Assembly (NCBI RefSeq): GCF_024713975.1
Contig: NC_091112.1
Location: 19,006,501 to 19,070,500, forward strand
Reading direction: 5' to 3'
Length of the DNA: 64,000 nucleotides
From: Paralichthys olivaceus
Taxonomy: Eukaryota > Chordata > Actinopteri > Pleuronectiformes > Paralichthyidae
Positions 741 through 32,033 of this stretch are shown here, in pieces (the first letter of the stretch is position 1; every line of letters starts with the position of its first letter). The notes under the pieces are model-generated. The model saw only the letters and a list, made by a program, of their open reading frames with translations, was not told the DNA's origin and did not search any database. A program made the position numbers and the translations under genes.

Positions 741-2634
741 ACCACAATGCCAAAAGGAAAATATTTGGTGAACTAAATATTCATTATAGTGCTGATTTGG
801 AAAAACAGCATCAGCTGTCACATGCCTGTTCTTGGTGAGAGGCCTAAGAAGAAATCCTGCGCACTGTTAGTAGAACTGCAGAAAAATTACACAATTAAGT
901 GATTTAAAAGTAAGATCTGACATTTTATCTTTGCCTTGTTGTATCAACAACTTTTCTCCATCTGTGTCTGCAAATCTTTCTGGGAATTTGGGGCCTTTAC
1001 CTGCAGTTTGACAGGAAGCAGAAAACACATGTCTCCTCTGCAGAACATTGGTGGTGAAAACACAGATGAGGTTTCTTTGCTTGGACCAATGACGAGGCAG
1101 AACTTTTACTGTTCATGGATGTTCACTGAGTCGTGCCTGAGGGCATGTGGGTCATCATTCCTGAAAGTCACCATTTCTGTTTGTCCAGACCTCGACACAA
1201 CGCTGCAGTTTTGTTTCCAAAAGTCTCAGAATCTAAAAATCTTAAAACTTGACTTGTACACACAAGGTTATACAAATATAACGCAAAACATTTTTCCAGT
1301 TTAACTGTATGTGTGGTGGAAAGCCACGTTTGCTTGAATAAAGAACATATAGTAGAAAGCAGTTGCTGCTGGAAGTGACACATTTTCCACCCAAGGAAAA
1401 AGTAAAGAAAATGAGTGCAGCTCAGTGAGTGACAAACACATTTTTTTAAAACCATGTTCAGTGGTGATTAAATGGAAAAGTGTCAGAGCATCGACCCACA
1501 GCGACGTTACACACCAAGAATGGAGCTGTTCATATGGTTGACCGCAGTTTTGAGAAGAAATGATTGACTCTGGTCATCTTTAAGGGACTGGCAGCATATT
1601 ATATTGATTTAGCACCAGTATCACCAAAACCGAGTCATTTTGTCCAGCACCATCTTTATGATCTATTTGACTCTAAGTGATCATAATTTACAAAGTGAAC
1701 ATCAGCTGTATTGATGAAGGCTTGAAACTAGAGACTGAGACATGAACTCCTTAAATGTTTACTGACTTTATAAATGAAGTGAAGATTGATTGTTGTCACC
1801 ATGACAGTTGATATTAAATCCTACACTCGGGTCCTTTTAATGAACGATCAAACAAAGACATGTAAATGTCATTGTCACTTCAGTCAGCACCTTTAATGCA
1901 TGTTACATTTCTGCTTCTATCACCTTGTCTTTTATCGTGACGATGAACAAAGAAGACAACAGAACAGAACAGACAAAATGAACTCTGCGTGTTTCATAGC
2001 ACTGCATATTCACCCCTACAAGCACATTGTATGAAACAAACCGCAAAGTAAAAAGTAACAGTGTTTAAAAAGTAAAACAGCACCAGGATGAGGGTCTGGG
2101 ACAGTCATTGGTGTAAAGAAGTTACTGTACATCTCCATCTGAGCCCATGATGTGTCCGACGAGGTTTGAGTTTAAATCCCTTTGAGATAACTTTGTATGA
2201 AATATGTATAACAGGTCTTGATTTGATGTGTGTTTTAAATTTATATACAGAAATAATATTCTAGCTTAACATGCTACAGCCATGCTAAAGCTGCAGCATT
2301 TATACAGTGAGTGCTTTGATATATCAATGTCAACAACATAGGACAACAGCTCTTTGATATAAAGCCTTGAAATAGATCAAAGCAGAATCATACTCAACAA
2401 CCATTAGTTGACGTCAGCTCCATGACATTCTTATGAAGACTTCTTTAAACCGCCACTGACGACTTCAGTAGACCAGTGCTTCGCAGCAAATATACTTTAC
2501 AACAACTCTGTACTTTTACAGATTTTAAAAGCAAACCTGTGTAAATAACTTAAATTAATTCAGCTCTTTGAATGTATCTGAAGTTAGAGTGGGACTGTGT
2601 TTTTACCTGTTATATGTATATTTATATTTTTCAG
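741..2634. other. No recognisable gene; upstream of the coiled-coil gene
   Basis: I see only short open frames here, none with a recognisable motif. A CRE-like tgacgtca lies near 2409, about 230 bases before the first recognised exon. It might belong to that gene's promoter or first intron, but no upstream exon could be defined. Confidence 0.4.
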
Positions 2635-2646
2635 GCACTTGGAAAA

Positions 2647-5168
2647 ATGAAGTCTGAAAGATCTCATGCCAGCTGCCCAATCATCCTGGAGGAAACTGGT
2701 TTAGCTGCTGAGAACGTTTTTCTAGCTGCTGAGAATGCTGTTCTAGCTCCTGAGAACGCTGTTCTAGCTCTTGGAAATGCTGCTCTAGCTGCTGAGAACG
2801 CTGTTCTAGCTGCTGAGATTGCTGTTCTAACCAGTGAGAAAGCTGCTATAGCTGCTGAGAAAGTTGCTCTAACTGCTAATAACAATACTCTAACTCCTGA
2901 GGTCACTGCTCTAGTTGATGAAAAAGCTGATCTAGTTGCTACGAAAGCTACTCTAACTGCTTCAAATGCTGCTCTGACTTGTGAGAACATTACTACAGCT
3001 CCTGAGATCGCTGTTCTAATTACTGAGACCACTGCTCTAGCTGATGAAGTGGCTGCTTTAGCTATTGAGAATACTGCGCTAACTCAAGAAAATAATTCTT
3101 TGGAGAGGATGCTGGCTGCTAAAAATGCAGCTCAGGCTGAAGACAATGCTGCAGCAAGAGCTGCTCTGGTAGAGCAAAAGACTGCACTGAAGTGGCAGAT
3201 GGACTATTTGGCCTCACTGCTGTGTAAGGCCACATTCGACTTGGCCGACAGGGAGAAGTCTCTGGAAACAGCAAGAGCCAGAGAGGAAGAGTTGGATAAG
3301 GAGAAGGAGCTGGAATCTCTGAAGGAGGTGAGAGAGGATCTGATAACCCAGATCAGGAAAACAGAGGAGGAGTTGTCTTATAAGCAGGATGACGAAAAAA
3401 TCCTGATCCAGCAGAACTCTGAGCTTCAGGTACGTTACATCAGATAATTTTAGATTGGAATTATATGGATTGCAGCTTTGTTTCATGTTATAGATTTTGA
3501 AGAAGAAGACAATGCTGACACTGATGTTTTCTCTTTTCATGAACTTGCAGACCAACTCGTACAAGGAGAAGGTCAAAAAGGAGAAGAAAGAGAAGAAGAA
3601 GCAGGAAAAGAAAGAGCAACTGGAGAGAGAGAAGAAGGAGAGAGAAGAACAGAAGAAGAGAGAGAAGAAGGAGAGAGAAGAACTGAAGAAGAGAGAGAAG
3701 AAGGAGAGAGAAGAACTGAAGAAGAGAGAGAAGGAGAAGAAGGAGAGAGAAGAACTGAAGAAGAGAGAGAAGGAGAAGAAGGAGAGAGAAGAACAGAAGA
3801 AGAGAGAGAAGAAGGAGAGAGAAGAACTGAAGAAGAGAAAGAAGGAGAGAAAAGAACTGAAGAAGAGAGAGAAGAAGGAGAGAGAAGAACTGAAGAAGAG
3901 AGAGAAGAAGGAGAGAGAAGAACTGAAGAAGAGAGAGAAGAAGGAGAAGAAGGAGACAGAAGAACTGAAGAAGAGAGAGAAGGAAGAAATATCTCATGCC
4001 ATCTACTCAGGACTCAGTCAAACCCTCTGCGCTGCCCTCCTGGAGAAAACTGCTCTAACTCCTGAGATCGCTGCTCTAGCTGCTGGGAAAGCTGCTCTTG
4101 CTGCAGAGAATGCCGCTCTAGCGCCTGACAGCGCTGCTCTAACTGCTGAGAACAATGTTCTAGTTGCTGAGAATGCTGCTCTTACTGCTGAGGGAGCTGC
4201 TCTAGCTGCTGAGAATGCTGCCCTAGCTTCTGAGAATGCTGCTCTAATTGGTGAGAAAGCTGCTCTAGCTGCTGAAAAAGCTGCTCTAACCGCTGAGAAC
4301 TTGATTCTAGCTGATGAGAGCGTTGCTCTAGCTGCAGAGATTTCTGCTATAACTGCTGAGATCCATACTCTAATTGTTGAGTCCAATGCTCTAATTGCTA
4401 CGAACATTGCTCTAACTGCTGTGAAGGCTGCTCAAGCTCCAGAGGTAACAGCTCTAACTGCTGAGAAGGCTGCTCTAGTTGCTGAGAAGGATGCTCTTGC
4501 TGATGAGAAGGAAGCTCTAAGTGGAGTAAGTAGTGTTCTGGAGAGGAAGCTGGCTGCTCAGAATGCAGCTCTGGCCGAAGACAAAGCTGCAGCAAGGGCT
4601 GCTCTGGCAAAACAAAAGACTGCACTGACAAAGCAGCTAGACTATTATGCCTCACTGCTGTGTCATGCCACACACGACTTGGCCGACAGGGAGAACTCTC
4701 TGCAAACAGTAGGAGCCAGAGTAGAAGAATTGGAGAAGGAGCTCGAAGATCTGAAGACGACAATGAAAGTAAAACAGGAAGCAAGATTCAAACAGAAACT
4801 AGATCAGGGAGACAAAGGAGAAGACGCAAAATTGATCCAGCAGAACTCTGAGCTTCAGGTACGTTACATCAGATCATTTTAGATTTTATATGGATTGTAG
4901 GGTTGTTTCATGTTTAGACTTTGAAGAAAATGCTGACATTATGTTTTCTCTGTCTTTTCAGGAACTCTCATTGAAGACCGACTCGTACAAGGAAAAGGTC
5001 AAAAAGGAGGAAAAGGAGAAGAAAGAGAAAAAGAAGCAGGAAAACAAAGAGCAACTGGAAAGAGAAAAGAAGGAGAAAGAAGAACTGAAGCAGAGAGAGG
5101 AGAGAGAAGAGAAACACATGAGGAAGCTGTTCCCGTGTTTTGTCATTAAAGGCTGGAACTCGTCCTAA
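2647..5168 (+). CDS. Alanine-heptad / charged-helix coiled-coil protein, 3 visible exons
   Basis: I do not recognise this gene; it resembles fish models named trichohyalin-like or golgin-like. Exons: 2635-3429, 3551-4858 and 4962-5168 (TAA/TAG-type stop at the end). Both introns are GT-AG and phase 0, so the three exons join in frame. The ATG at 2647 has an A at -3 and would give 765 residues, but the first exon is open back to its acceptor (AG at 2633-2634), so an upstream coding exon is possible. Exon 1 encodes 19 heptads of the type ALAAENA, then a conserved end (LERMLAAKNAAQAEDNAAA to SELQ). Exon 2 has a Lys/Glu/Arg region of 11-residue repeats, then 23 heptads and the same end. Exon 3 repeats the SYKEKVKKE start and finishes with a non-repetitive tail containing KLFPCFVIKGW. 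No signal peptide or membrane segment is seen. Expression is untested. Confidence 0.65.
2698..3096 (+). repeat. 21-bp coding repeat, 19 alanine-rich heptads (exon 1)
   Basis: Nineteen consecutive 7-codon units with consensus ALxAENA run without a single length change, then pass into SLERMLA. The units have diverged at third positions and at the E-N pair, so the array is old but its period has been kept. Confidence 0.85.
3641..3988 (+). repeat. 33-bp coding minisatellite, 11-residue charged repeats (exon 2)
   Basis: About ten units of consensus REELKKREKKE follow one another, with occasional KE insertions. The plus strand is almost purely purine. Long Leu/Phe/Ser-rich open frames on the opposite strand are a by-product of this composition and are not genes. 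Confidence 0.85.
4052..4534 (+). repeat. 21-bp coding repeat, 23 alanine-rich heptads (exon 2)
   Basis: Twenty-three uninterrupted 7-codon units run from ALTPEIA to ALSGVSS, with consensus ALTAENA. They are homologous to the exon 1 array and lead into the same LERKLAAQNAALAEDKAA end segment. Confidence 0.85.
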
Positions 5169-5511: not shown

Positions 5512-6119
5512 CCAATGTGTTATAATGAGCTACACAAATGCTAAGCTGTCTCAGTCCTGCGTGTCTCTCATGAGGCAGCTCAAGTGCAGTCTTTTAAACC
5601 AGGAGGATCAATCAGCTAACAGCTCACATCTACACTGGTTGATCCTCTGGTACAGGTGAAGCTGCTCTCCCAGGCCCCTAACCTCCACAGTAATGTTATG
5701 TAATATATTTTCACTTCATTTTTGTTTAATGGGGTTCATCTTAATTACACCTCTGATGCTAAAACATCAACCACAAAGGAGACAGCACCTGGCTGGTGCA
5801 TGTTTGTCGCCATTTGTTGATGAGTCAAACATTCAATCTGTTTAGCTGCTAAATGTAAAGTAGAACATTACTGACTAACTCACCGCTGTGAGCATGTTCC
5901 AGATTTTGACTTACATCCATACTTTATTTTAATATTTTATCTTTCATTTCAGATATCTCTGATCCTGGAACCTGCGAACAACAACTTTTACTATTATTAC
6001 TATTATTTATTACAATATCTCAGTAATTAATTATAATATGAATTGTGCCTGTTATCAATAAAAATTAATAATCTTTACACTGTTGTTTACTTTTTAACTA
6101 GTCAAATATGATAATTGAT
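5512..6119. other. Intergenic, no gene seen
   Basis: There are no open frames with recognisable motifs. A TTA/TAT-rich stretch occurs near 5985-6040. The dispersed element described next begins around 6120. Confidence 0.4.
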
Positions 6120-6540
6120 GGCGCTCAAGTGTCCCTGGTCTTTCTCTCCCACCCCTCTCCCCTACTTCCCCCTCCCCACTATCCCTCAATCTTCTCTCCC
6201 CTCTTTTGCACTCATCTCTCCTCTCCTCCCCCGTTTTCTTTGCTCCCCCCAACCGGTCGAGGCAGATGACCGCCCACATTGAGCCTGGTACTTCTAGAGG
6301 TTTCTCTCTGTTAATGAGGGAGTTTTTCCTCCACAGTCGCTAAAGTGCTGCTCATTGTGGGAACTGTTGGGTTTCTCTATATTAATACGATTTTAAGGTC
6401 TTGACCTTTTTTGTAAAGTGCCTTGAGATAATGTAGATAGATATATAGATAGATTACTTTATTCATCACCAAAGGGAAATTAGGTAATGTATATTATGAT
6501 GTGGTGCTATACAAATAAAATTGAATTGAATTGAACTGAA
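6120..6540 (+). mobile_element. TTGAA-tailed SINE-like dispersed repeat
   Basis: It shares long blocks, in the opposite orientation, with the element at 9307-9747, including ccaaccggtcgaggcagatg and tgggaactgttgggtttctc. The 3' end reads ctatacaaataaaattg followed by ttgaa repeats. A roughly 55-base piece at 6432-6485 (GATA repeats, then actttattcatcaccaaagg) interrupts it. That piece looks like the tail of another retroelement in minus orientation, with taatgta on both sides. Confidence 0.75.
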
Positions 6541-6946
6541 TTATTGTCTTTACTTGTGAATGCTGATTACTGTTCAAACCAGTCAGTCTGGGTCTGCAGG
6601 TCTGGTTCAAGCTCTTCTGCACTTTGACATGAAGTCAAGATTATCAGTCCTCCTCCAAGTGTCATTTGGAAACCAAAACAAAAAGCTAACAGACAAAAGT
6701 CTGTAGAACAAAGTCCAAACAAAGAGATACAAGTATTCTAGTTGTAGCATATGTGACACCCACAAATGTATGGTCACAATTGTTGAGTTGTTTGAATTAT
6801 TGTGTATTTTTCTATGGAAAAGGCCAGATTTAAATGTGTTTTCTATATTGGTTTTAGTAAGGTGCGTTTCACAACTCCACCACAAGAGGGAGTATGACCA
6901 AAGGTGAGCGCCAGTTGTAGTAAGCTGTGTCAGGCTTCCCTCTCTT

Positions 6947-7020
6947 AAACAGAGGACTGCCTGCTGAATGAACACAACTGACGGCTCTTGTCTGTACTTT
7001 CCTGTACCAAACAGGTTAGT
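6947..7020 (+). repeat. Direct repeat, left copy
   Basis: The sequence around cagaggactgcctgctgaat is repeated at 7573-7643 with a few differences and an internal deletion of about 7 bases. The copies flank about 550 bases without recognised genes. Confidence 0.7.
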
Positions 7021-7572
7021 AATGAGTGTTAATGTATCACAATGTATCCTGAAGGACTTATAAAGCCTTCTTGATGTTGTGAGTAAAGTTTGAGCATTAG
7101 AGTTTCCTTTAGAGAAACTGTCGATGTTTTCATTTGGTTGTATAGAGCTCCAGAGCATTTCTATTTCATTTCATTAATTTGATTTAGATTAACATCGTTA
7201 ATTCATTGTACTGTGTTGATAAGGTAAAAATGTTAAATCTTATATCTTTGTATGGTAAAAAGACTGACGTTTGTTACTGTGAAGTCTGCATCATTGTGTA
7301 AAAATTGGGTAAAAGTGTTCAGGCATACAGTAGAGTAGGAAAGCTATGTCGAGCAAGCTGGGATATCTTTCGAGGCTGGTTGAAGCAGCATGGGGAAAAT
7401 GTGTGTTTGAGTGCACATTGTTTGTTTACAGTGATTGGTAGTTTCGTTGTTACAGGTAATGATATACAGAGATGTAGAAGTACCAGATTTATGTTATGCT
7501 AACAGTAATATGTCTGTTAATTTGTGAAGTTGTGTATTGGTGGATATTATGTTTAATATTAGCCTGTTATTA
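7021..7572. other. Spacer between direct repeats, no gene seen
   Basis: Short open frames only, with no motif I can assign. Confidence 0.35.
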
Positions 7573-7643
7573 AAAAACAGAGGACTGCCTGTTGAATGAA
7601 CACAACTGTTTGTACTTTTCCTGTACAAAACAAGTAACTCATC
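7573..7643 (+). repeat. Direct repeat, right copy
   Basis: Counterpart of 6947-7020. The duplicated upstream block of the BAX-like gene begins immediately after it. Confidence 0.7.
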
Positions 7644-7659
7644 CTGAGGCCTGTAACAC

Positions 7660-7929
7660 ATACGATCAGAAAAAAGCAGCTTTTACAACACAATATTAAA
7701 CGAGTGGAGGGTTATTAAAACTAAGAACTACTCAAATATATATTGTAGAAAAACAGAAAGTGGAACTGGTTCACAGAAACCCGCCTTTGGTGACTAATGA
7801 CTCATCTATCTCACAGACACACACAGCTCCGCCTACTGAACCGTCAAGGAAGAGGAAGTGTCACTGAAGAGAAGCGGAGAGAAGTTTCTCTTTAAGTATT
7901 TTTGTCTTAAAGTTTTTCACTTTTTAACC
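7660..7929 (+). promoter_or_regulatory. Upstream region of BAX-like copy A
   Basis: This block is shared with the pseudogene upstream region (10305-10576) and, in part, with copy C (13771-14003, reversed). It carries an AP-1-like pair (tgactaatgactcat, near 7792-7806) and a GC-box-like ctccgcc near 7829. Copy C lacks the AP-1 pair because its homology breaks at a CA-rich stretch. No TATA box is obvious. Any function is inferred. Confidence 0.4.
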
Positions 7930-8520
7930 ATGGCGTGTGATGGCTTGTCTGATGAGAGGATAGGAAAGGCCCTGATCAAAGATGTAATTGAGGAGGAACT
8001 GAAACACACAGCCTCAGACGACGTCCCGTCCCTCACCCTCTATACTGTGGAATTAAAGAATGAGGAGGACAAGCTTGTGGACCAGGTGAGCACATTGGTC
8101 CGCAAAATTGGTGACAAAATAAAGGATGACGTGGAGATCCGAGATGAAATAGACGGGCTTGCACGAGGCTTCAGGTGGGACAGATTTAACTCAGTGGCAA
8201 ACAAGGTGCTTGAGGATGGGATCACCTGGGAGAGGATTGCTGTGCTAATCTATGTTGCCAGCAAGTTGGCAGTCAGAATGGTGGAGGCTCATATGCCTCA
8301 GTCAGTGATGGAGATCCTGAAGTGCACCGTGGACTTTTTCAAAAAACATCTCCTTTCCTGGATTTTGCAACGAGGAGGATGGATCTGCAGCTTCTCAGAG
8401 CTGGCGGTGGCGTCCATGCAGACCGCGTCATCCATGAGCTCTGACAGAGGAGGCCTTGTCATCACCTTCTTCGCCGGCATAGCTCTCGGAGGCTTCATCA
8501 CCTGGAGACTGACCCGTTGA
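7930..8520 (+). CDS. BAX-like BCL-2 family protein, copy A (uninterrupted ORF)
   Basis: It encodes 196 residues starting at a good Kozak ATG (aaccATGG). BCL-2 family features occur in order: a BH3-like helix at about 53-68 (LVRKIGDKIKDD, with the Gly-Asp pair at 61-62); BH1 at 94-114 (EDGITWERIAVLIYVASKL); BH2 at 141-157 (LLSWILQRGGWICSFSE); and a C-terminal membrane anchor at 174-193, then Arg-Leu-Thr-Arg. Length and the BH1-BH2 pattern fit multidomain effectors of the BAX type, which permeabilise the outer mitochondrial membrane. A fish-specific relative such as bcl2l16 is equally possible. The usual NWGR Gly of BH1 is Glu here (TWER). Family BAX genes have several introns, whereas this ORF has none. 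Copy C differs by 7 substitutions and a 2-residue gap. Activity is not shown by sequence. Confidence 0.85.
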   Translation: MACDGLSDERIGKALIKDVIEEELKHTASDDVPSLTLYTVELKNEEDKLVDQVSTLVRKIGDKIKDDVEIRDEIDGLARGFRWDRFNSVANKVLEDGITWERIAVLIYVASKLAVRMVEAHMPQSVMEILKCTVDFFKKHLLSWILQRGGWICSFSELAVASMQTASSMSSDRGGLVITFFAGIALGGFITWRLTR

Positions 8521-8640
8521 CTCAGGGGCAGTTTGTTGGTGCAAACATTTTCAAAGAATTATTTTCTACTTTTCTAATTCTCTAGCAATTTCTCTGTAAA
8601 ACTGGAAAACTTGGGGGTGACAGCAATGACACTAGGGCTG

Positions 8641-8642
<2 letters not shown>

Positions 8643-8714
<72 letters not shown>
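8643..8714 (+). repeat. 72-base poly-G tract
   Basis: There are 72 consecutive G after gctgcc, in the 3' flank of copy A. At the equivalent place in copy C (about 13046-13052, reversed) the run is only 7 bases. It could be a real expansion or an assembly or sequencing artefact. Confidence 0.9.
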
Positions 8715-8716
<2 letters not shown>

Positions 8717-8948
8717 GGATTGTGAATGCTGATTACTGTTCAGACACTGTTCTGCACTTTGACATCATGTCAAGATTCTCAGTCCTCCTCCACCTGTTAA
8801 GACATGTCTGTCACACTTTAAAATGAGACTTTATAGTCACTGTGAAACTGATAAATGCTACTGTTCTAATATAACTGGAATGATTTACGGAACGGCTATT
8901 TTTCTATACATTGCAATACAAAATGGATGTTTTGTTTCAGTCTGATAA

Positions 8949-8954
8949 AATAAA
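8949..8954 (+). terminator. Candidate poly(A) signal of BAX-like copy A
   Basis: An AATAAA lies about 430 bases after the stop codon, within the block also present after pseudogene B. Assigned by position. Confidence 0.4.
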
Positions 8955-9306
8955 CATTTTAAAATAATATTTTGCTTTTCAATTTTTATACACATTGACC
9001 ACCAAATGCAGCACTGCACTATTTCAGTTGATAAACAATTCACATACCAAGATGTGATGTTTTCAGTGTCTTGATAGTTTGAGTCTGATAATAAAGTTAA
9101 GGTGATTTATAACCATATCTAATAATAAAGATAAAGCAGAAATGCTTGACAGCAGATTTGGAATTATGTCGTTATAGGCTGACAGAAACAATTGGAAGGC
9201 ACAAAAGCCATAGAGTGAAATAAAAGGATTTGTAGCTTACATATAAATAACTTGTCTTTCAAATGAGAAGAAGACCATGAAGCGTATTGTTCTCCTTTAC
9301 TAACTT

Positions 9307-9747
9307 TTCAATTCAATTCAATTTTATTTATATAGCGCCAATTCATAATTTACATTATCTCAAGGCACTTTACATTTAAAGGTCAAGACCTTAAAACAAT
9401 ATTAACATAGAGAAACCCAACAGTTCCCACAATGAGCAAGCACAGGCGACTGTGGAGAGGAAAAACTCCCTCATTAACAGGGAGAAACCTCTGGCAGAAC
9501 CAGGCTCAATGTGGGCGGTCATCTGCCTCGACCGGTTGGGGTGAGGAAAGAAAAGTAAGGGGGGAGGAAAGGAGAGATGGGTGGAAAGCGGGGGAGAGAA
9601 GAGAGAGATGAGGTGGAGAGAGAGAGACCGGTAACAATTTGGCACCATCAAAATCAAGGCTAACCATAACAATAACAATGTATAGATCTACAACATGACT
9701 AGATATATTAATGAATTGCTGAGTTCTTGTAATAAATGAAGACAATG
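9307..9747 (-). mobile_element. TTGAA-tailed SINE-like repeat with a matching empty site
   Basis: Its tail is at the low-coordinate end (ttcaattcaattcaatttta), and its body matches 6120-6540 in reverse. The duplicated flank after pseudogene B runs directly from ctaactt to gtgtctg at about 11193-11200, without this 441-base segment. That gives an internal empty-site comparison. No clear target duplication is visible. Confidence 0.75.
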
Positions 9748-9754
9748 GTGTCTG

Positions 9755-9793
<39 letters not shown>

Positions 9794-10061
9794 CCTTGAA
9801 ATTAAATTATGGATTTCAGAATCCATAAATATGTCAATAGTTCATTTCAGAAGTTGAAGTGCTGGTAATAATTTAATAGTGAAGCTCAAACATTCAACTG
9901 TATGGACATTGTGCACATTGGTGAGCATGTGTGTGTGAGTGTTTAATGTGACTCATCATCATCTATGTAGATTCATCGCTGTCACCCTCAAGTTTGCAAA
10001 AAAAAGTAGTGAGAAAACTTTTCGGCAAGAAGGTGTGTCTCAGAGTTAACTGTTCAATCTC
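9748..10061. repeat. Duplicated flank, copy 1
   Basis: This is nearly identical to 11198-11513. Its right end (ctgtcaccctcaagtt to caatctcc) resembles the 3' flank of copy C on the plus strand (13073-13190). It therefore looks like the 3' flank of a further minus-strand BAX-like copy whose coding part is gone. Confidence 0.65.
9759..9791 (+). repeat. (TG)n microsatellite
   Basis: A pure TG run. A shorter, interrupted version lies at the homologous position about 11209-11238. Confidence 0.9.
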
Positions 10062-10159
10062 CATAGTTTGCATGTAAAAGCCTAACACAAAGACCACTGT
10101 AAACATGTCAGTGGGACTGTTAGTTATATTTTTAAACTTTGGACAGAACCAGGTGACCA

Positions 10160-10345
10160 GATGATGCTTCCTGTCTTTATGATGAGCTAAGTCCATGCTG
10201 ACTCATGGCCTATCCTTGATACACAGATATGAGTGATAATGTCAGTGATTCGTCATTTCAGGATATGGTATGAACTCATGAGATGCAAGTATTCTAGTTG
10301 TAGCATACAATCAGAAAAAAGCAGCTTTTACAGCACAATATTAAA
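10160..10345. repeat. Upstream duplicated block, inverted match to 12400-12680
   Basis: Positions 10161-10215 and 10255-10345 match the reverse complement of 12400-12680, including gatgatgcttcctgtcttta and ggatatggtatgaa. Together with 12400-12680 it forms one arm pair of the inverted cluster. Confidence 0.65.
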
Positions 10346-10576
10346 TGAGTGGAGGGTTATTAAAGCTAAGAATTACTAAAATATATATTGTAGTAAAACA
10401 GAAAGTGGAACTGGTTCACAGAAACCCGCCTTATGTCACTAATGACTCATCTATCTCACAGACACACACACACAGCTCCGCCTACTGAACCGTCAAGGAA
10501 GAGGAAGTGTCACTGAAGAGAAGCGGAGAGAAGTTTCTCTTCTATTTTTGTCTTAAAGTTTAACTTTTTTTTAACC

Positions 10577-10830
10577 ATGGCGTAGTGAACGTGACGGCTT
10601 ATCTAATGAGAGGATAGGAAAGGCCCTGATCAAAAATGGAATTGAGGAGGAACTGAAACACACAGCCTCAGACGACGTCCCGTCCCTCACCCTCTATACT
10701 GTGGAATTAAAGAATGAGGAGGACAAGCTTGTAGATCAGCTGGGCACATTGATCCGCAAAATTGGTGACAAATTAAAGGATGACGTGGAGATCCGAAATG
10801 AAATAGACGGGCTTGCACGAGGCTTCAGGT
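10577..10830 (+). pseudogene. BAX-like pseudogene, copy B
   Basis: It matches copy A from the upstream region through the BH3 helix. An extra A after ATGGCGT creates a stop at codon 3 and shifts the frame. At cttcaggt the homology jumps straight to the equivalent of 8944 (gataaaataaac in A), so about 770 bases are missing. The lost part includes BH1, BH2, the membrane anchor and the poly-G tract. The downstream block 10831-11197 then follows copy A's 3' flank. Confidence 0.85.
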
Positions 10831-11197
10831 GATAAAAAAATAAACATTTTAAAATAATTTCTTGTTATTCACTTTTTATACACATTGACCACCAAATGCA
10901 GCACTGCACTATTTCAGTTGATAAACAATTCACATACCAAGATGTGATGTTCTCAGTGTCTTGATAGTTTGAGTCTGATAATAAAGTTAAGGTGATTTAT
11001 AACCATATCTAATTATAAAGATAAAGCAGAAATGCTTGACAGCAGATTTGGAATAATGTCGTTATAGGCTGACAGAAACAATTGGAAGGCACAAAAGCCA
11101 TAGAGTGAAATAAAAGGATTTGTAGCTTACATATAAATAACTTGTCTTTCAAATGAGAAGAAGACCCATGAAGCGTATTGTTCTCCTTTACTAACTT

Positions 11198-11494
11198 GTG
11201 TCTGTTTTGTGTGTGTGTGTGTGTGTGTGAGTGTGTGTTATCCTTGAAATTAAATTATGGATTTCAGAATCCATAATTATGTCAATAGTTCATTTCAGAA
11301 GTTGAAGTGCTGGTAATAATTTAATAGTGAAGCTCAAACATTCAACTGTATGGACATTGTGCACATTGGTGAGCATGTGTGTGTGTGTGTTTAATGTGAC
11401 TCATCATCATCTATGTAGATTCATCGCTGTCACCCTCAAGTTTTGCAAAAAAAAGGAGTGAGAAAACTTTTCGGCAAGAAGGTGTGTCTCAGAG
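11198..11494. repeat. Duplicated flank, copy 2
   Basis: Second copy of 9748-10061 with small differences. Unlike the first copy, it runs into a recognisable C-terminal coding scrap of a minus-strand BAX-like gene. Confidence 0.7.
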
Positions 11495-11564
11495 TTAACT
11501 GTTCAATCTCCAGGGGATGAACCCTCTGAGAGCTATGCCGGCAAAGAAGGTGATGACAAGGCCT
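11495..11564 (-). pseudogene. BAX-like C-terminal relic, copy D
   Basis: On the minus strand this corresponds to the last about 23 codons of copy C (anchor segment GLVITFFAGIALGG and the stop), with substitutions; the homologous stop reads TAA. Homology ends at 11564, where unrelated sequence begins. Matching upstream DNA reappears at 12360-12680, so the rest of the gene appears to have been replaced or deleted. Confidence 0.75.
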
Positions 11565-11842
11565 TAAATCAGAGAAGCAAAGATAATAAAAAGAGGACTC
11601 TTAACAAGAGCTGCACAAACCTAAAGCAAACCAAAACGACATTAAATCCTTTTTAAACAAAACAACTGGTTCACAATCAAAAAACAAACAAAATACCAAC
11701 ATTAATTCTCTAATACGCAATTCTGAAAACAGAAAATAGTTATATCTTAATAACAGACGTTCTATCAATGGTGCTAGTTTGGCGAGCTGTTCCAACACAC
11801 CTCCACTGACTCAGCTGGATGGAACTTATACTGCCGCCAGCC

Positions 11843-12160
11843 TTAAAGGTACAGTGTGTAGAATGTTGTGATATCTAGTGTTGAAGTTGCATGTTGCAGC
11901 TGAAGACCCCTCATCTCACCCTCTCCTTCCAAACATGAAAAAGAACCTGTGGTAGCTTCAGTTGTCATAAAAACTCAAAAGGTGTTTAGTTTGTCCAGTC
12001 TGGACTAATGTTAAAAACATGGCCGCCTCCGTAGAGAGGGTCCCCTCAATGTAAATATAAAGTATTTAAATATAAAGGGTCTTTTCTGGGGTAAAGAAAA
12101 CTACAATTCATATAATTTAGATGAAATGAACTAGAGAAAACATCAACATTGATGTTGCTT
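11843..12160 (+). mobile_element. TTAA-flanked inverted-repeat element, incomplete
   Basis: It begins TTAAAGGTACAGTGTGTAGA and follows the element at 29242-30326 for about 300 bases, including cctctccttccaaacatgaa, then diverges before the second end. The TTAA target and termini suggest a piggyBac-like non-autonomous element. No coding sequence is present. Confidence 0.7.
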
Positions 12161-12359
12161 CACTCCTGATCTGTCCTCACCACCAGCCAGGAAGGAGGAG
12201 GAGCATCTGCCAGGCTTGCACAGCACACAGAGAGAGACAATACAAACTAACATGGACAGGGGATGGCTACAGCCGCATCACTCAGTGACACTTAAAACCT
12301 CTTCCTGATGGCTCAGTCTGCTGAGCTGTGTGTGTGTGTGTGTCATAAGTCAGTTAAGG

Positions 12360-12680
12360 CTGTTTTTTATGATCCAGTTCCACTTTCTTAAAATAGACAG
12401 TTTTAATTAACCCTCCACTCATTTAATATTGTGTAATAAAAGCTACTCTTTTCTGAACATATATGCAAAAACTAGATTACTTGCATCTCTTGATTTCATA
12501 CCATATCCTGAAATTACATTCATTTTCCAAATCATTACCAAGTTGATTTTCACACGTGAAATTGACATTGTGAGGATAATGCTCAGTTGCCTTCATTATC
12601 ACTCATGTCTGTGTATCAAGTATAGGCCATGAGTCAGTATGGACTTAGCTCACCATAAAGACAGGAAGCATCATCTTGTC
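12360..12680 (-). repeat. Upstream block of relic copy D
   Basis: Reversed, this matches the BAX-like upstream sequence (ccactcatttaatattgtgt against 7690-7715) and the block 10160-10345, including gcctat and gatacacag near 12615-12630. An extra stretch at about 12525-12595 is absent from the other copy. Confidence 0.65.
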
Positions 12681-13045
12681 ACAAATGTGAAAAGTAATAA
12701 AGCAAATTCAGTTTAATTTTATGGAAGTAGTGATTATATAATCTAAATTACAGGGAAACTAGGTAGGATGAACACGTCTGTACAATTTTCAACTGCACCA
12801 GAGCAAACAGGCAAGTTTAGAATAAGCCCTGCCCTAGTAAGTTTAAATTTCAAGTATAGTTTAACAATGCCTATCCTCACAGAAAACAAACAGCAGAGCA
12901 GGGTTCAAATCAAAGGTTTTAATGAGTACCTCATTACATTGCTGACCACAAAACAAAGATTACAGCAGTAAAGATGGATTTTTAATTTTAGAATTAAAAA
13001 ACAAACTAAATGGATTTCTGCCAAATAGCAACACATCTTATAGAC
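12681..13045. other. Spacer before copy C, no gene seen
   Basis: There is one short open frame with no recognisable motif. Homology with copy A's 3' flank starts at the G/C run near 13046. Confidence 0.4.
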
Positions 13046-13173
13046 CCCCCCGGCAGCCCTAGTGTCATTGCTGTCACCCCCAAGTTTTACAGTTTTACAG
13101 AGAAATTGCTAGAGAATTAGAAAAGTAGAAAATCATTCTTTGAAAATGTTTGCACCAACAAACTGCCCCTGAG

Positions 13174-13770
13174 TCAACTGGTCAGTCTCCAGGTGATGAA
13201 GCCTCCGAGAGCTATGCCGGCGAAGAAGGTGATGACAAGGCCTCCTCTGTCAGAGCTCATGGATGACGCGGTCTGCATGGACGCCACCGCCAGCTCTGAG
13301 AAGCTGCAGATCCATCCTCCTCGCTGCAAAATCCAGGAAAGGAGATATTTTTTGAAAAAGTCCACGGTGCACTTCAGGATCTCCATCACTGACTGAGGCA
13401 TATGCGCCTCCACCATTCTGACTGCCAACTTGCCGACGACGTAGATGAGCGCAGCAATCCTCTCCCAGGTGATCCCATCCTCAAGCACCTTGTTTGCCAC
13501 TGAGTTAAATCTGTCCCACCTGAAGCCTCGTGCAAGCCCGTCTATTTCATCTCGGATCTCCACGTCATCCTTTAATTTGTCACCAATTTTGCGGACCAAT
13601 GTGCTCAGCTGGTCCACAAGCTTGTCCTCCTCATTCTTTAATTCCACAGTGTAGAGGGTGAGGGACGGGACGTCGTCTGAAGCTGTGTGTTTCAGTTCCT
13701 CCTCAATTACATCTTTGATCAGGGCCTTTCCTATCCTCTCATCAGACAAGCCGTCACGTTCACACGCCAT
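13174..13770 (-). CDS. BAX-like BCL-2 family protein, copy C (uninterrupted ORF)
   Basis: It encodes 198 residues on the minus strand from an ATG in the same Kozak setting as copy A. All BCL-2 family features are present: BH3-like LVRKIGDKLKDD, BH1 DGITWERIAALIYVVGKL, BH2 LLSWILQRGGW, and the C-terminal anchor. Against copy A it has Glu-Arg inserted after residue 3. Its substitutions, in copy A numbering, are V53L, I64L, V105A, A110V, S111G, H140Y and R196S. Two of these, at 110-111, fall in the normally conserved BH1 segment. No introns or frame breaks are present. The duplicated DNA extends from about 13046 to 14003. Both intact copies could be functional, or they may simply be recent. Same family caveats as copy A. 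Confidence 0.85.
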   Translation of the reverse strand: MACERDGLSDERIGKALIKDVIEEELKHTASDDVPSLTLYTVELKNEEDKLVDQLSTLVRKIGDKLKDDVEIRDEIDGLARGFRWDRFNSVANKVLEDGITWERIAALIYVVGKLAVRMVEAHMPQSVMEILKCTVDFFKKYLLSWILQRGGWICSFSELAVASMQTASSMSSDRGGLVITFFAGIALGGFITWRLTS

Positions 13771-14311
13771 GGTTAAAAAGTGAAAAACTTTAAGACAAAA
13801 ATACTTGAAGAGAAACTTCTCTCCGCTTCTCTTCAGTGATACTTCCTCTTCCTTGACGGTTCAGTAGGCGGAGCTGTGTGTGTCTGTGTGTGTGAGAGGT
13901 GTGAATGGTATCACATGAGCGATATGTGAGACATGTACTGGTTTATGTGATCCAGTTCCACTTTCTGTTTTACTACAATATGAATTTGAGCAATTCTTAG
14001 TTTTAGAGGAGGAGCGAGGAGGACCAGAGGAGCGAGGTGGTGACAGCCAGCGGGTTCAGCTCAGCTGCGCATTCCTCAGGATACACGTCCATCCGGTTTT
14101 ACGCACGGGTCCCTCTCTCTCACTTTGACTCATCCGGGCAAGTGTTTGCACGTTTGTCCACAACACTATGCTCACTCACTCACATCGACATTACTGACAC
14201 TACTGACATACACACTCCACCTTTATTGTTAATTCTTGGATGTTTCATTTATAATAAATACTTTAAACTACCGTCATCCACTGTGTCCATCTCCGTATTT
14301 GTCATGCCCTG

Positions 14312-15773: not shown

Positions 15774-18700
15774 TCAAACAGTTAAAAAGTGTGGAAAAGA
15801 CAGCTCATCATCATTTACGGTGCAGATTATGTTTTTAAAACACCAGCGTTTTTTAAAAGACTCGAGATCAGAGATATGTTTGTAAAAGTTGAACTCGAGT
15901 CTGAGTCTTGCTCGGAGGTTTGTCACCCACACTGCCATTGCTTCCTGTCCTTCCCTGTTCTCCACCCTGTGTTTTCGGCTAACATATATAGCCAGTTTGG
16001 CTTCACCGGATAAGAAGTTTAGGAGCTGCCACTTCTCTTTATTAAAATTCTTGTAGCCAGCTCCCATGATAAAAACCTTCTCAGTAAAAATTATGTTAAA
16101 AAGACTAAAAACCGTGGTTAAAAGAGAGAAGAGACTTGTGAGTCTCTTGCACTCAGTAAAAACGTGATAAACAGTCTCACGCAGATTGCAAAAAGGGCAC
16201 TTGTTAAGAACAGTGGGATTAATAACAGAAATAAAAGCGTTGGAAGCAATGGCACCGTGTAAAATTCTCCACTGGAGGTCGCCGGTCCTTTTTTTTAGGG
16301 GAGGTTTATATAAAATCCGCCACTGTGGGCTGGGTCCATTTTCACCCCACCTCTGTGTCCACACAGTGGGGGGCCTGTTGCTCAGTCCGGACTGGTGGAT
16401 GCTCTTTACACAGTTTCTGTAGAAGGTTCTTTTGTCACTTCTGTGTATAGTTAGTTTGTGTTTATTTATTATAGTGAGTAGGGGGCCGGTCTTCTCTCCC
16501 AGCCCTGGGCTCAGGATGATATCCGGGTAGGGGTCTGCAGCATCAGGTTTAATTTCTTTGTTTTGGTGGCCCCTCAGGAGGCTTTTTTCTTTTTCGGAGA
16601 GCCTCTGGGTCCAGAGCTCTAGGATCCTCTGGGCCACCCGGAGAGACTGCAGCCCCAGCAGGGAGCCCAGGGCCTGGGTGTTGGTTAGTGTCGGCCCCAC
16701 TGCATCCACCAGCTGCTGTAGGGTCAGGGTTCCAGACCGGGTCAGCGCCGCCATCAGGCCATGTGTTGTCTTGTCGCTGACGTCCAGTCTGGCTCCATTG
16801 ACAATGGGTTCTCTCAACAACCAGTGCAGAGAGTTGGCTTCCGGGAACCTTTTATGGTTAAAAAGGGCCCATGACTTAAAAACACCTTGATAAAAGGGAG
16901 GTAACATAGTTAGTTTTAAAAATTTAGGATCAGTTAAAAACAGAGCATCATCCAACCCCAGCTTATTGGCACGCCTAAGGATGCTGCTGGCCACGTCTCT
17001 CCACACCAGATCTGCCGGACCTGTGAGGTACCTTTGTATGAACTGGAGTCTAAAAGTGGCAGTCCGGCTGGCCAGGTGGACAAGGCCCTGTCCCCCCTCC
17101 TCCCTGTCTAAAAACAGCACCCCCTGTGGCACCCAGTGTAGCCCTCCCCAGAGGAAGTCAACCATCTTCCTCTGGATTTCTGCGAGTAAGCCTGGGGGGG
17201 GGTCTACACAGGTAAGTCGGTGCCACAGCTGGGATGCTACCAAGTTGTTTAAAACCAGAACTCTACCTCTAAAAGACATCTGGGGGAGCAGCCATTTCCA
17301 ATTGTTGAGTTTGTTTTGAATTTTTTCTGTGACGGTCTCCCAGTTCTTCTTCATTATATGGTCTGCTCCTAAAAACACCCCGAGATATTTTAAACCTCCT
17401 TTCTTCCACTCCAGGTTTTGGGGGAGAACCGGGAGACCGCTGCGCCACTCACCGACAGCGAGGGCTTCGCTTTTTTTCCAGTTGACCCTCGCTGCCGATG
17501 CCGAGCTAAAATCCTTAATAATGTCTGCTAAAACGTCAACCTCCATTTGGTTCTTAATAAAAACTATAAGATCGTCTGCATAGGCAGATAAAATCATGTT
17601 TCTACTAAAACCAGGATAAAACAACCCTTGAAGGTTGGAACGTATTTTGTGGAGGAGAGGTTCCAGGGAGAGAGCGTAGAGCATCCCTGACAGAGCGCAG
17701 CCCTGCCTGACACCTCTACACACTCTAAAAGGAGCACTCAGACTGCCGTTGACCTTCAGCACACTCTCAACATCACTGTACAGCACCTTGATCTTAGCTA
17801 TGAAGCCAGCGCTGAACCCAAACTTCCCCATCACTTTCCACAGGAAGCTGTGTTCAACACGGTCAAAAGCCTTTTCTTGGTCTATGGAAATGAAACCAGT
17901 GTTTGCACCTAATGAGCTAGAGACATCCAAAACATCTCGAATCAGGTGGACATTGTCCACCATGGACCTGCCGGGGACGCAGTAGGTCTGGTCCCGGTGG
18001 ATGACCTGCTCCATAGCCCTTCCCAGCCTGGAGGCCAATACTTTGGACAGGAGTTTGTAATCCACACAGAGCAGTGACACAGGGCGCCAGTTTCTGATGT
18101 CCTGCAGGTTCCCCTTTTTGGGCAGTAGTGTGAGGACTGCCCTCCTGCAGGACACTGGCATGGAACCAGAGGCCAGACACTCATTAAAAACCTCTGAGAC
18201 ATCCTTTGCGAGGATGTCCCAGTAGGCCTTATAAAATTCCACTGTGAGGCCATCAATGCCAGGAGCTCGCCGTCCCTGCATGCCCTGCAGGGCGGTCAGT
18301 AGCTCCTGCATCTGGAGGGGGCCCTCGAGCTGTGAGTTGGTCTCTGCAGAGACTTGGGGTAGTCCCCCGCAGAAACCTTCCAGGAGCGCCGGCTCCTCCT
18401 TGTACTCGGTGGAGTATAAAAGTTGATAAAAGCTCACAGCCCGCCCTCGTATCTGGCTTGGTTCCGTCAGTTCTTGCCCCGTGTCAGACAGCAGTGCGTG
18501 GATTACTTTCCCCTGCCCGTTCTTTTTCTCCAGGCTGAAGAAATAGCTAGAGGGAGCATCCATCTCTGTGATGTTCTGGAACCGGGACCTGACCAACGCG
18601 CCCTGTACTTTACTGTCCAGCAGGTCGGCTAAGGCCATTTTTTTCTCTTTGAGGCTTTCAATATAACCTCGATTTCCGGTGGACTCACTTAAATGTTCTA

Positions 18701-19745
18701 GTTTCACTATTTCGGTCTCTAGATCCTTCATAGATCTGGTGCTATCTCGTGTGACGTTTAGTGTGTGCTGTTGACACAATAGTCTTATTTGTGTCTTACC
18801 ATGATCAAACCACTGCCTAAGATTGTTAAAATCGCCCTTCCTCTGTCTAAAAACACCCCAGAAATAAATAAAGACCTCTCTAAAACTCCTATCAAATGTT
18901 AAAGCAGAATTAAAATGCCAATAAGCACTTTTGGGTAAAATGTTCCTGATAAAAACATGAGATAAAATGAGAGAATGATCAGTAAAACCAGCAGGCATAA
19001 TAACACAACTCTTAAAAATGTTAAAATGATGTTTAAAACAATAAATACGATCTAGTCTGGCTAAGGAGACCCTGCTCTCTCTGAAGTGGGACCAGGTGTA
19101 CTGTCTGGAGTCTGGGTGCATCCTCCTCCACACATCCACCAGGCCGTGAGAGCGGACCAGCTGCTTCAAGGCGTGCTGAGAGGCTGCATGAGGCTCTGTG
19201 TGGTTCCGATCTAAAATCGCATCTTCAGTGCAGTTAAAATCCCCCCCCAAGAATAAAAAATCCTCCGTAGAGCAACCATTTAAAACGTCATTTACTTTGA
19301 CTAAAAACTGCTTCCTCTCTGCACCAGATGTTGGAGCATAAATGTTGATAAAAACAGCAGCAAAATGGTCGAACTGAGCTTTGACTAAAAGAAGCCTCCC
19401 CTCGATAAAATGTTGGACCTCCAGTGCCTTGGGTTTAAAAGCCCGTGAGAAGAGGAAGCCCACTCCTCCACTGAGGGAGGTGTTGTGACTTAAAATGGCT
19501 TCCCCTTCCCACTCCCTCTTCCAGTCAGACTCATTATTAAAATCACTATGCGTTTCTTGTAAAAAGAAGACATCTATTTTTTTCATTTTGGCTGATTCAT
19601 AAATAAAATGTCTTTTCTTTTGGTCTCTTGCACCGTTTACGTTTAAAACACCTATTTTAAAAACATCCATAGTGGTAGAGATGTTAAAAACTATAATAGA
19701 AAACAATAAGTTAATTAAAACACACATTGCTGCCTTTTCCATCAC
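15774..19745 (-). CDS. Tx1-type LINE ORF2: endonuclease and reverse transcriptase
   Basis: This is an open frame of 1,323 codons. The first ATG is at 19745, but the conserved protein starts at Met26 (19670; MDVFKIGVLNVNGARDQ), which is the likelier start. An APE-type endonuclease spans about 30-260 (motifs QETHSD, GGDFNCTED, DRIYCF, TDHSLI). It nicks target DNA to prime reverse transcription. The reverse transcriptase lies at about 490-760 (GIDGLTVEFY, NWRPVSLLCVDYK, DQEKAFDRVEH, and the catalytic YADD at 722-725). A CX2C-X7-H-X4-C motif (CPFCNLRETVYHVFTEC) lies near the C-terminus. Length and order match Tx1-like ORF2, and no stop or frameshift is seen. The frame overlaps the end of ORF1 by 35 bases. 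Confidence 0.92.
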   Translation of the reverse strand: MMEKAAMCVLINLLFSIIVFNISTTMDVFKIGVLNVNGARDQKKRHFIYESAKMKKIDVFFLQETHSDFNNESDWKREWEGEAILSHNTSLSGGVGFLFSRAFKPKALEVQHFIEGRLLLVKAQFDHFAAVFINIYAPTSGAERKQFLVKVNDVLNGCSTEDFLFLGGDFNCTEDAILDRNHTEPHAASQHALKQLVRSHGLVDVWRRMHPDSRQYTWSHFRESRVSLARLDRIYCFKHHFNIFKSCVIMPAGFTDHSLILSHVFIRNILPKSAYWHFNSALTFDRSFREVFIYFWGVFRQRKGDFNNLRQWFDHGKTQIRLLCQQHTLNVTRDSTRSMKDLETEIVKLEHLSESTGNRGYIESLKEKKMALADLLDSKVQGALVRSRFQNITEMDAPSSYFFSLEKKNGQGKVIHALLSDTGQELTEPSQIRGRAVSFYQLLYSTEYKEEPALLEGFCGGLPQVSAETNSQLEGPLQMQELLTALQGMQGRRAPGIDGLTVEFYKAYWDILAKDVSEVFNECLASGSMPVSCRRAVLTLLPKKGNLQDIRNWRPVSLLCVDYKLLSKVLASRLGRAMEQVIHRDQTYCVPGRSMVDNVHLIRDVLDVSSSLGANTGFISIDQEKAFDRVEHSFLWKVMGKFGFSAGFIAKIKVLYSDVESVLKVNGSLSAPFRVCRGVRQGCALSGMLYALSLEPLLHKIRSNLQGLFYPGFSRNMILSAYADDLIVFIKNQMEVDVLADIIKDFSSASAARVNWKKSEALAVGEWRSGLPVLPQNLEWKKGGLKYLGVFLGADHIMKKNWETVTEKIQNKLNNWKWLLPQMSFRGRVLVLNNLVASQLWHRLTCVDPPPGLLAEIQRKMVDFLWGGLHWVPQGVLFLDREEGGQGLVHLASRTATFRLQFIQRYLTGPADLVWRDVASSILRRANKLGLDDALFLTDPKFLKLTMLPPFYQGVFKSWALFNHKRFPEANSLHWLLREPIVNGARLDVSDKTTHGLMAALTRSGTLTLQQLVDAVGPTLTNTQALGSLLGLQSLRVAQRILELWTQRLSEKEKSLLRGHQNKEIKPDAADPYPDIILSPGLGEKTGPLLTIINKHKLTIHRSDKRTFYRNCVKSIHQSGLSNRPPTVWTQRWGENGPSPQWRILYKPPLKKRTGDLQWRILHGAIASNAFISVINPTVLNKCPFCNLRETVYHVFTECKRLTSLFSLLTTVFSLFNIIFTEKVFIMGAGYKNFNKEKWQLLNFLSGEAKLAIYVSRKHRVENREGQEAMAVWVTNLRARLRLEFNFYKHISDLESFKKRWCFKNIICTVNDDELSFPHFLTV

Positions 19746-25952: not shown

Positions 25953-32033
<6,081 letters not shown>

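What the first reader, a model, noticed from the sequence alone, without database searches (positions are those of the whole stretch)
7640..14003. Inverted cluster of four BAX-like gene copies, two intact
Within 6.4 kb there are two intact BAX-like ORFs in opposite orientation, a truncated copy and a C-terminal relic, in the order A(+), B(+), D(-), C(-). Flanks are shared both directly (9748-10061 with 11198-11494) and inverted (10160-10345 with 12360-12680). This looks like tandem duplication followed by inversion or fold-back, with the outer two genes preserved. Such arrangements promote gene conversion and copy-number variation of a death effector.
Basis: partly seen in the sequence, partly recalled or inferred. 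Interest (0 to 1): 0.75.

Follow-up and report, generated by a model that had tools for sequence, protein, structure and literature searches.

The report
Flounder cluster of intronless BAX genes
A flatfish chromosome (olive flounder or a very close relative) carries a small mirror-image cluster of four copies of a cell-death gene, two intact and two broken, and the intact ones lack introns that this gene appears to have in other fishes, so they probably descend from a reverse-copied gene that later multiplied.

Summary
Within 7.66-14.0 kb lie A(+) 7930-8520 and C(-) 13174-13770, intact 196/198-codon BAX-type ORFs; B(+), an early-stopped copy with a ~769-bp deletion; and D(-), a C-terminal relic. 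Order: A> B> <D <C. The DNA is from olive flounder (Paralichthys olivaceus) or very close: A differs at one residue from a P. olivaceus BAX-like record. The proteins are of the teleost baxb type. Best explanation: a retrocopy of baxb founded the locus and spread by DNA duplication (tail-to-tail, then tandem); B and D decayed, A and C show moderate constraint (dN/dS 0.25, p 0.008; 0.08 without one dense cluster of differences). Homogenisation between copies is suggested for A/C and by a mosaic pair in dab. Nine database rows of this type, six with Paralichthyidae/Pleuronectidae names, form one clade with A and C; no intron-type baxb with such a name appeared in the listed hits, so the retrocopy may have replaced the parent. 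Expression, synteny and copy number were not testable here.

The parts
7930..8520 (+). Copy A: intact intronless BAX(b)-type ORF, 196 aa
   Evidence: Pfam Bcl-2 E 2.6e-18; 195/196 residues identical to P0001, Paralichthys olivaceus 'apoptosis regulator BAX-like'
13174..13770 (-). Copy C: intact intronless BAX(b)-type ORF, 198 aa
   Evidence: Pfam E 6.9e-18; best PDB match BAX; 96% identical to A
10577..10831 (+). Copy B: pseudogene, N-terminal ~80 codons; stop at codon 3 plus frame change; rest deleted
11498..11641 (-). Copy D: C-terminal relic (membrane-anchor tail recognisable, two in-frame stops before it)
   Evidence: 80-nt block 11485-11564 differs from A at 11 and from C at 10 sites
12273..12682 (-). 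Upstream flank of copy D, homologue of B's upstream flank 10153-10526
7659..7929 (+). Upstream flank and 5' leader of A (shared with B 10304-10576; only 7716-7781 and 7812-7929 align well with C)
13771..14005 (-). Upstream flank of C; homology to A/B ends at 14005
8947..9306 (+). 3' flank of A with AATAAA at 8949, 97.5% like 10837-11197 after B
9307..9747 (+). 441-bp segment with dispersed-repeat matches, present behind A and absent at 11197/11198 behind B
9748..10063 (+). Copy of D's 3' flank carried with A (97.8% to 11198-11512); includes the end of D (10036-10063 = 11485-11512)
11836..12145 (.). Dispersed repeat inside the D locus (other copies at 27933-28194, 29237-29386, 30088-30255)
8643..8714 (+). 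Run of 72 G; the A/C homology ends inside its first bases (C has 7 G there)

Best explanation
This is a locus of duplicated, intronless baxb-type BAX genes in olive flounder or a very close relative. Shown: two intact ORFs, two broken copies, mirror-image order, no introns in the coding frames. Inferred: (1) a spliced baxb mRNA was reverse-copied into the genome in the ancestry of Paralichthyidae and Pleuronectidae; (2) DNA-level duplication made a tail-to-tail pair (B side and D side) and a further same-strand copy behind D (C); (3) D decayed; (4) B with its 3' flank and the end of D was duplicated in tandem, giving A; (5) B was broken by a ~769-bp deletion and an early stop; (6) A and C were kept, moderately constrained, and parts were homogenised between copies. 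Each intact product most likely works as an ordinary BAX effector: a soluble helical bundle with a BH3 helix, a BH1 region, a GGW BH2 motif and a C-terminal anchor that inserts into the mitochondrial outer membrane and forms pores when BH3-only proteins activate it. That function is by homology only.
For: No introns: of 10 same-species isoform pairs (8 species, 0 substitutions in each), 8 pairs from 6 species have clean indels at the place of A residues 5-7 (Lates calcarifer, L. japonicus, Cebidichthys, Channa, Salarias) or 115/116 (Lates calcarifer, Solea), and the Salarias pair also at 93-104, as expected of splice junctions; A and C read through these places. Bax, Bak and Bok genes generally have 4-6 exons (PMC8998228, passage). 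Clade: in a 32-row tree (30 of the 143 database proteins found, plus A and C) A, C and 9 rows form one group, 100/100, stem 0.26 changes per site. Constraint: 8 synonymous and 7 non-synonymous A/C codon changes, NG86 dN 0.0155, dS 0.063, Fisher p 0.008. DNA duplication with flanks. Homogenisation: A/C differ at 7/66 sites in the upstream block but 19/831 in the gene block, p 0.0018, while A/B are even (4/66, 18/363, p 0.76); using only the two untranslated parts, 4/240 against 7/66, p 0.0026. Two Limanda proteins share 60 identical residues then differ at 33 places, 0 of 20000 permutations. Fold: AlphaFold model mean pLDDT 78, top Foldseek row BAX 4s0o, E 4.8e-6.
Against: No poly-A tail or target-site duplication was recognised at the edges of the shared block (by eye), and the parent's position is unknown, so retroposition rests on intron absence alone, and parental introns are inferred from isoform indels, not DNA. 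The selection signal weakens without the dense cluster of A/C differences (4 S, 4 N, p 0.08). B's changes do not settle its constraint: A/B 8 N and 3 S, C/B 6 N and 5 S. The A/C protein pair shows no mosaic by the run test (p 0.70). The Limanda mosaic could be a gene-model artefact (two models sharing a first exon). The anchor region of the model has pLDDT below 50; the top Foldseek row has rmsd 11.7, and BOK, BAK and BCL-xL score close to BAX. No expression data.
Confidence: 0.66

Rival explanations
1. The resident baxb lost its introns in place (recombination with a cDNA) and then duplicated; no new locus was founded.
For: No intron-type baxb row with a Paralichthyidae or Pleuronectidae name was seen in the listed rows. 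No poly-A or target-site duplication was recognised.
Against: Loss of all coding introns in place is thought rarer than retroposition (general knowledge); no synteny evidence either way.
Confidence: 0.2
2. The doubling is an assembly artefact: allelic or repeated contigs joined in opposite orientation.
For: A and C are 98% alike over 713 nt.
Against: The far flanks differ: 12683-13044 has no match in 6000-12682, and 14006-15700 matches the cluster only by short repeat-like pieces. Copies carry private indels and insertions. Limanda has two distinct rows with the same longest-contig length, as do two rows listing an 8023-base contig.
Confidence: 0.06
3. A and C are recent pseudogene-like copies with no function, intact only because young.
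For: 7 amino-acid changes and a 2-codon length difference between A and C; long stem branch; p 0.08 for constraint without the dense cluster.
Against: dN/dS 0.25, p 0.008 over the whole frame; full-length relatives are recorded in Platichthys, Hippoglossus and Limanda.
Confidence: 0.15
4. A and C are alike because C arose by a recent inverted duplication of A, not by conversion.
For: The high-identity block is gene-sized, 7812-8649, and ends in a G-run; the A/C protein run test shows no mosaic (p 0.70).
Against: Homology continues upstream at 89% (7716-7781) beyond a patch that aligns badly, which a single recent copy event does not predict; A/B divergence is even across the same span.
Confidence: 0.4

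Closest known systems
Teleost baxb / BAX effector genes
   Same: Full-length alignment to fish 'BAX-like' and 'BCL2 associated X, apoptosis regulator b' records; Bcl-2 domain, BH3 core, GGW, hydrophobic C-terminal tail
   Different: Intronless coding frame, several copies in one 6.4-kb cluster, long stem branch
Mouse Bcl2a1 (A1) quadruplication
   Same: A Bcl-2 family gene in four copies, three functional and one truncated pseudogene (PMC3731243, one passage)
   Different: Pro-survival member (recalled); here a pro-death type, inverted order, intronless
Elephant TP53 retrogenes
   Same: A retrocopy of a death-pathway gene expanded by segmental duplication (PMC5061548, abstract and section headings)
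   Different: 20 TP53 copies there, the retrogenes said not to act directly as transcription factors; here two full-length copies
Teleost intronless hatching-enzyme and rhodopsin genes
   Same: Teleost genes that lost their introns, ascribed to retrocopy (PMC6385490 abstract; PMC6650399 listing with start of abstract)
   Different: Not apoptosis genes; genomic relocation was shown for hatching enzyme and could not be tested here

Membership tests
BAX (baxb type) within the Bcl-2 family | Bcl-2 domain above the curated cut-off | tested here: met
   66.9 and 65.5 bits against cut-off 31.4
BAX (baxb type) within the Bcl-2 family | Closer to BAX than to BAK, BOK or pro-survival members by sequence | tested here: met
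   C: 12 BAX sequences at 50-57 bits, best BOK 41, best BAK 37, best BCL-xL 36.5
BAX (baxb type) within the Bcl-2 family | BH3 core I-G-D, BH1 and GGW BH2 present | tested here: met
   G61, I98, W100, G149, G150, W151 invariant and I60, D62 nearly invariant in 46 rows, numbered on A; assignment of motif names recalled, GGW as BH2 from PMC8998228
BAX (baxb type) within the Bcl-2 family | C-terminal membrane anchor helix | tested here: inconclusive
   Hydrophobic tail present and helix 178-195 modelled, but pLDDT below 50 over 166-189
BAX (baxb type) within the Bcl-2 family | Permeabilises the mitochondrial outer membrane | not testable with these tools
   needs an assay
Processed retrogene | Introns of the parent gene absent | tested here: met
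   parental introns inferred from isoform indels and a review, not from parental DNA
Processed retrogene | Poly-A remnant and target-site duplication | tested here: inconclusive
   none recognised by eye; expected to be lost in an old copy
Processed retrogene | Different genomic position from the parent | not tested
   no fish genome DNA was reachable; the genome search did not complete

The most novel reading that the evidence does not exclude
In the lineage of Paralichthyidae and Pleuronectidae the ordinary multi-exon baxb was lost and replaced by a retrocopy, which then became a small, converting, birth-and-death family of BAX effectors, so that a core death gene changes copy number and sequence by conversion between inverted copies.
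Probability: 0.38. Interest if true: 0.62.

Novelty: new variant of a known kind. Interest (0 to 1): 0.45.

Why it matters
BAX is a core executioner of apoptosis, and such genes generally have 4-6 exons (PMC8998228). A retrocopy that took over and multiplied would be a natural test of how copy number, promoter change and conversion affect a dosage-sensitive death gene, in a farmed fish. A and C share closely only the 118 bp before the start codon; beyond that only a 66-bp block at 89% aligns well, so they may already differ in regulation.

Tried and rejected
Recalled candidates bcl2l16 and Bcl-wav were looked up by literature search only and dropped because the homologue list is baxb-type BAX. 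tRNA and Rfam scans of the window gave nothing. Literature: 'Paralichthys olivaceus' + BAX + retrogene, 0 papers; flatfish + bax + tandem duplication + apoptosis, 1 paper, on snailfish, listing only; retrogene + Bax + Bcl-2 family + intronless, 1 paper, on oyster IAP, listing only; P. olivaceus + Bcl-2 family + Bax, 29 papers, 12 listed, none about this locus by title; at least 3 of baxb, teleost, duplication, intron, 2371 papers, 15 listed; 'baxb' alone, 362 papers, 30 listed, mostly other meanings. I saw no report of this locus in these listings of an open-licence library; that is not proof of absence from print. AU tests could not place the flounder clade: nesting in Carangaria, in Pleuronectiformes or beside turbot is not rejected (p 0.49, 0.50, 0.54). 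Chance similarity was rejected on E-values. Viral origin was considered and set aside without a search.

Changes after re-checking the draft: six species (not seven) show splice-like isoform indels; B starts at 10577; D's greater age is stated more cautiously; the Limanda mosaic now carries a gene-model caveat; confidence lowered by 0.02 in two places for these reasons.
Full report
OBSERVATION. The window holds two intact BAX-type ORFs in opposite orientation, A at 7930-8520 (+, 196 aa) and C at 13174-13770 (-, 198 aa). Pfam Bcl-2 scores are 66.9 and 65.5 bits against a cut-off of 31.4. For C, 131 distinct PDB sequences match, 60 listed; the best 12 are BAX, and BOK, BAK and BCL-xL follow with lower scores. 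B (+, from 10577) keeps the first ~80 codons, with a stop at codon 3 and a frame change, and then jumps to sequence matching A's 3' flank, which amounts to loss of the equivalent of 8178-8946. D (-) is a C-terminal relic whose anchor tail is still readable after two in-frame stops.

SOURCE. The nearest protein is P0001, 'PREDICTED: apoptosis regulator BAX-like [Paralichthys olivaceus]'; A differs from it at one residue of 196. The window is therefore olive flounder or a very close relative. Pfam scans of six frames of 21301-64000 (18 frame references) found one host gene, a TMEM106 family gene on the minus strand with domain matches from about 32030 down to 26004, plus a reverse-transcriptase fragment and a DUF match, both below their curated cut-offs. 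A LINE-type element lies at 15774-19742 (reverse transcriptase E 4e-37, endonuclease E 5e-10) with a weak zinc-knuckle ORF at 20233-21222, both minus strand.

INTRONLESS GENES. Isoforms of single species in the hit lists show where other fishes splice this gene. I compared 10 isoform pairs from 8 species, none with substitutions. Five species have a 3-residue indel at the place of A residues 5-7 (Lates calcarifer, L. japonicus, Cebidichthys, Channa, Salarias); two have an indel at 115/116 (Lates calcarifer one residue, Solea two); the Salarias pair also differs by 93-104. The Siniperca pair differs by its start. The Etheostoma pair differs at 69-71 and at the end, and comes from records on different contigs, one marked partial. 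A and C run through these places without interruption, and through the GGW motif. A review states that Bax, Bak and Bok genes generally have 4-6 exons (PMC8998228, passages). I infer that the founder was a processed copy. I saw no poly-A tail or target-site duplication at the edges of the shared block (by eye).

ONE FLATFISH CLADE. In a tree of 32 proteins (30 of the 143 database proteins found, plus A and C), A, C, P. olivaceus P0001, Platichthys, two Hippoglossus, two Limanda and three unnamed ENA rows form one clade (100/100) on a stem of 0.26 changes per site; A, C and P0001 form a subclade (100/100). The six rows with a Paralichthyidae or Pleuronectidae name among the 116 rows are all in this clade, and none of the 120 listed of 173 rows (query turbot) is an intron-type baxb with such a name. 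Names are shown for one representative per 90% cluster; unnamed rows and the 53 unlisted rows could hide one, so loss of the parent is a hypothesis. AU tests do not reject nesting in Carangaria, Pleuronectiformes or beside turbot (p 0.49, 0.50, 0.54).

HISTORY OF THE CLUSTER. D is the most diverged copy: its upstream differs from B's at 54 of 339 aligned sites with 106 gap columns, although one 89-nt block has only 5 differences; its 80-nt tail differs from A at 11 and from C at 10 sites where A and C differ at 1. A/B upstream is about 94% alike. The stretch 9748-10063 behind A is 97.8% like 11198-11512 behind B and includes the end of D (10036-10063 = 11485-11512). So a tail-to-tail B/D pair preceded the tandem duplication that separated A and B. 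Behind A there is a 441-bp segment with dispersed-repeat matches (9307-9747) that is absent at 11197/11198; A's upstream homology to B breaks at 7659, with a 28-bp continuation at 6724-6751, as if about 907 bp had been inserted. C's homology to A ends at 8649 in the first bases of a 72-G run, where C has 7 G.

SELECTION AND CONVERSION. A and C differ at 15 codons, 8 synonymous and 7 not; NG86 dN 0.0155, dS 0.063; Fisher p 0.008. Seven of the 15 differences fall in 48 nt from 8243, permutation p 0.004, with the width chosen after looking; without them the Fisher test gives p 0.08. Over 78 codons B differs from A by 8 non-synonymous and 3 synonymous changes and from C by 6 and 5, which does not settle its constraint; its early stop and deletion do. 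A/C divergence is 7/66 at 7716-7781 but 19/831 in the gene block (p 0.0018); A/B is even (4/66 and 18/363, p 0.76); in 7812-8177 A/C is 7/366 and A/B 18/363 (p 0.026). With only the untranslated parts, A/C is 4/240 against 7/66 (p 0.0026). This suggests conversion between A and C, though faster change in B explains part of the contrast, and the protein run test on A/C is negative (p 0.70). In Limanda two rows share their first 60 residues exactly and then differ at 33 places, 0 of 20000 permutations reaching a run that long, while each against Platichthys gives p 0.36 and 0.74; that looks like conversion but could be two gene models sharing a first exon. Both Limanda rows list the same longest-contig length (23298610), and so do P0007 and P0094 (8023), which suggests linked copies there too.

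FUNCTION. An AlphaFold model of A (46-row alignment) has mean pLDDT 78 and nine helices, with the tail region below 50. Foldseek's top row is BAX 4s0o, E 4.8e-6 (rmsd 11.7 over 199 columns), with BOK, catfish BAX, BAK and BCL-xL close behind, so the fold places it in the family and the sequence names it BAX. I commit to a normal BAX effector role by homology; nothing here tests it.

VERDICT. A real, moderately interesting locus: ordinary in parts (BAX, duplication, pseudogenes), unusual in being an intronless BAX family, probably shared by several flounder genera and probably converting.

Noticed in passing
15774-21222: LINE-type element on the minus strand: 1322-aa ORF with endonuclease and reverse transcriptase domains and a 329-aa ORF with a weak zinc knuckle (below cut-off); both frames open, so possibly young.
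   Followed up: partly
26004-32030: TMEM106 family gene on the minus strand, the only host gene found by Pfam in 21301-64000; useful as a synteny marker. That it is the B paralogue is recalled, not tested.
   Followed up: partly
8643-8714: Uninterrupted run of 72 G, the only G or C run of 15 or more in the window; could be real or a sequencing artefact.
   Followed up: no
6554-6751: Traces matching A's 3' region (6554-6579, 6612-6662 with 8720-8745, 8747-8797) followed by a 28-bp match to B's upstream (6724-6751 with 10280-10307): perhaps remains of a fifth unit before A.
   Followed up: partly
2572-4882: Two ORFs over 21-bp and 33/66-bp tandem repeats, encoding alanine-rich and charged repetitive stretches; no Pfam family above its curated cut-off.
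   Followed up: no
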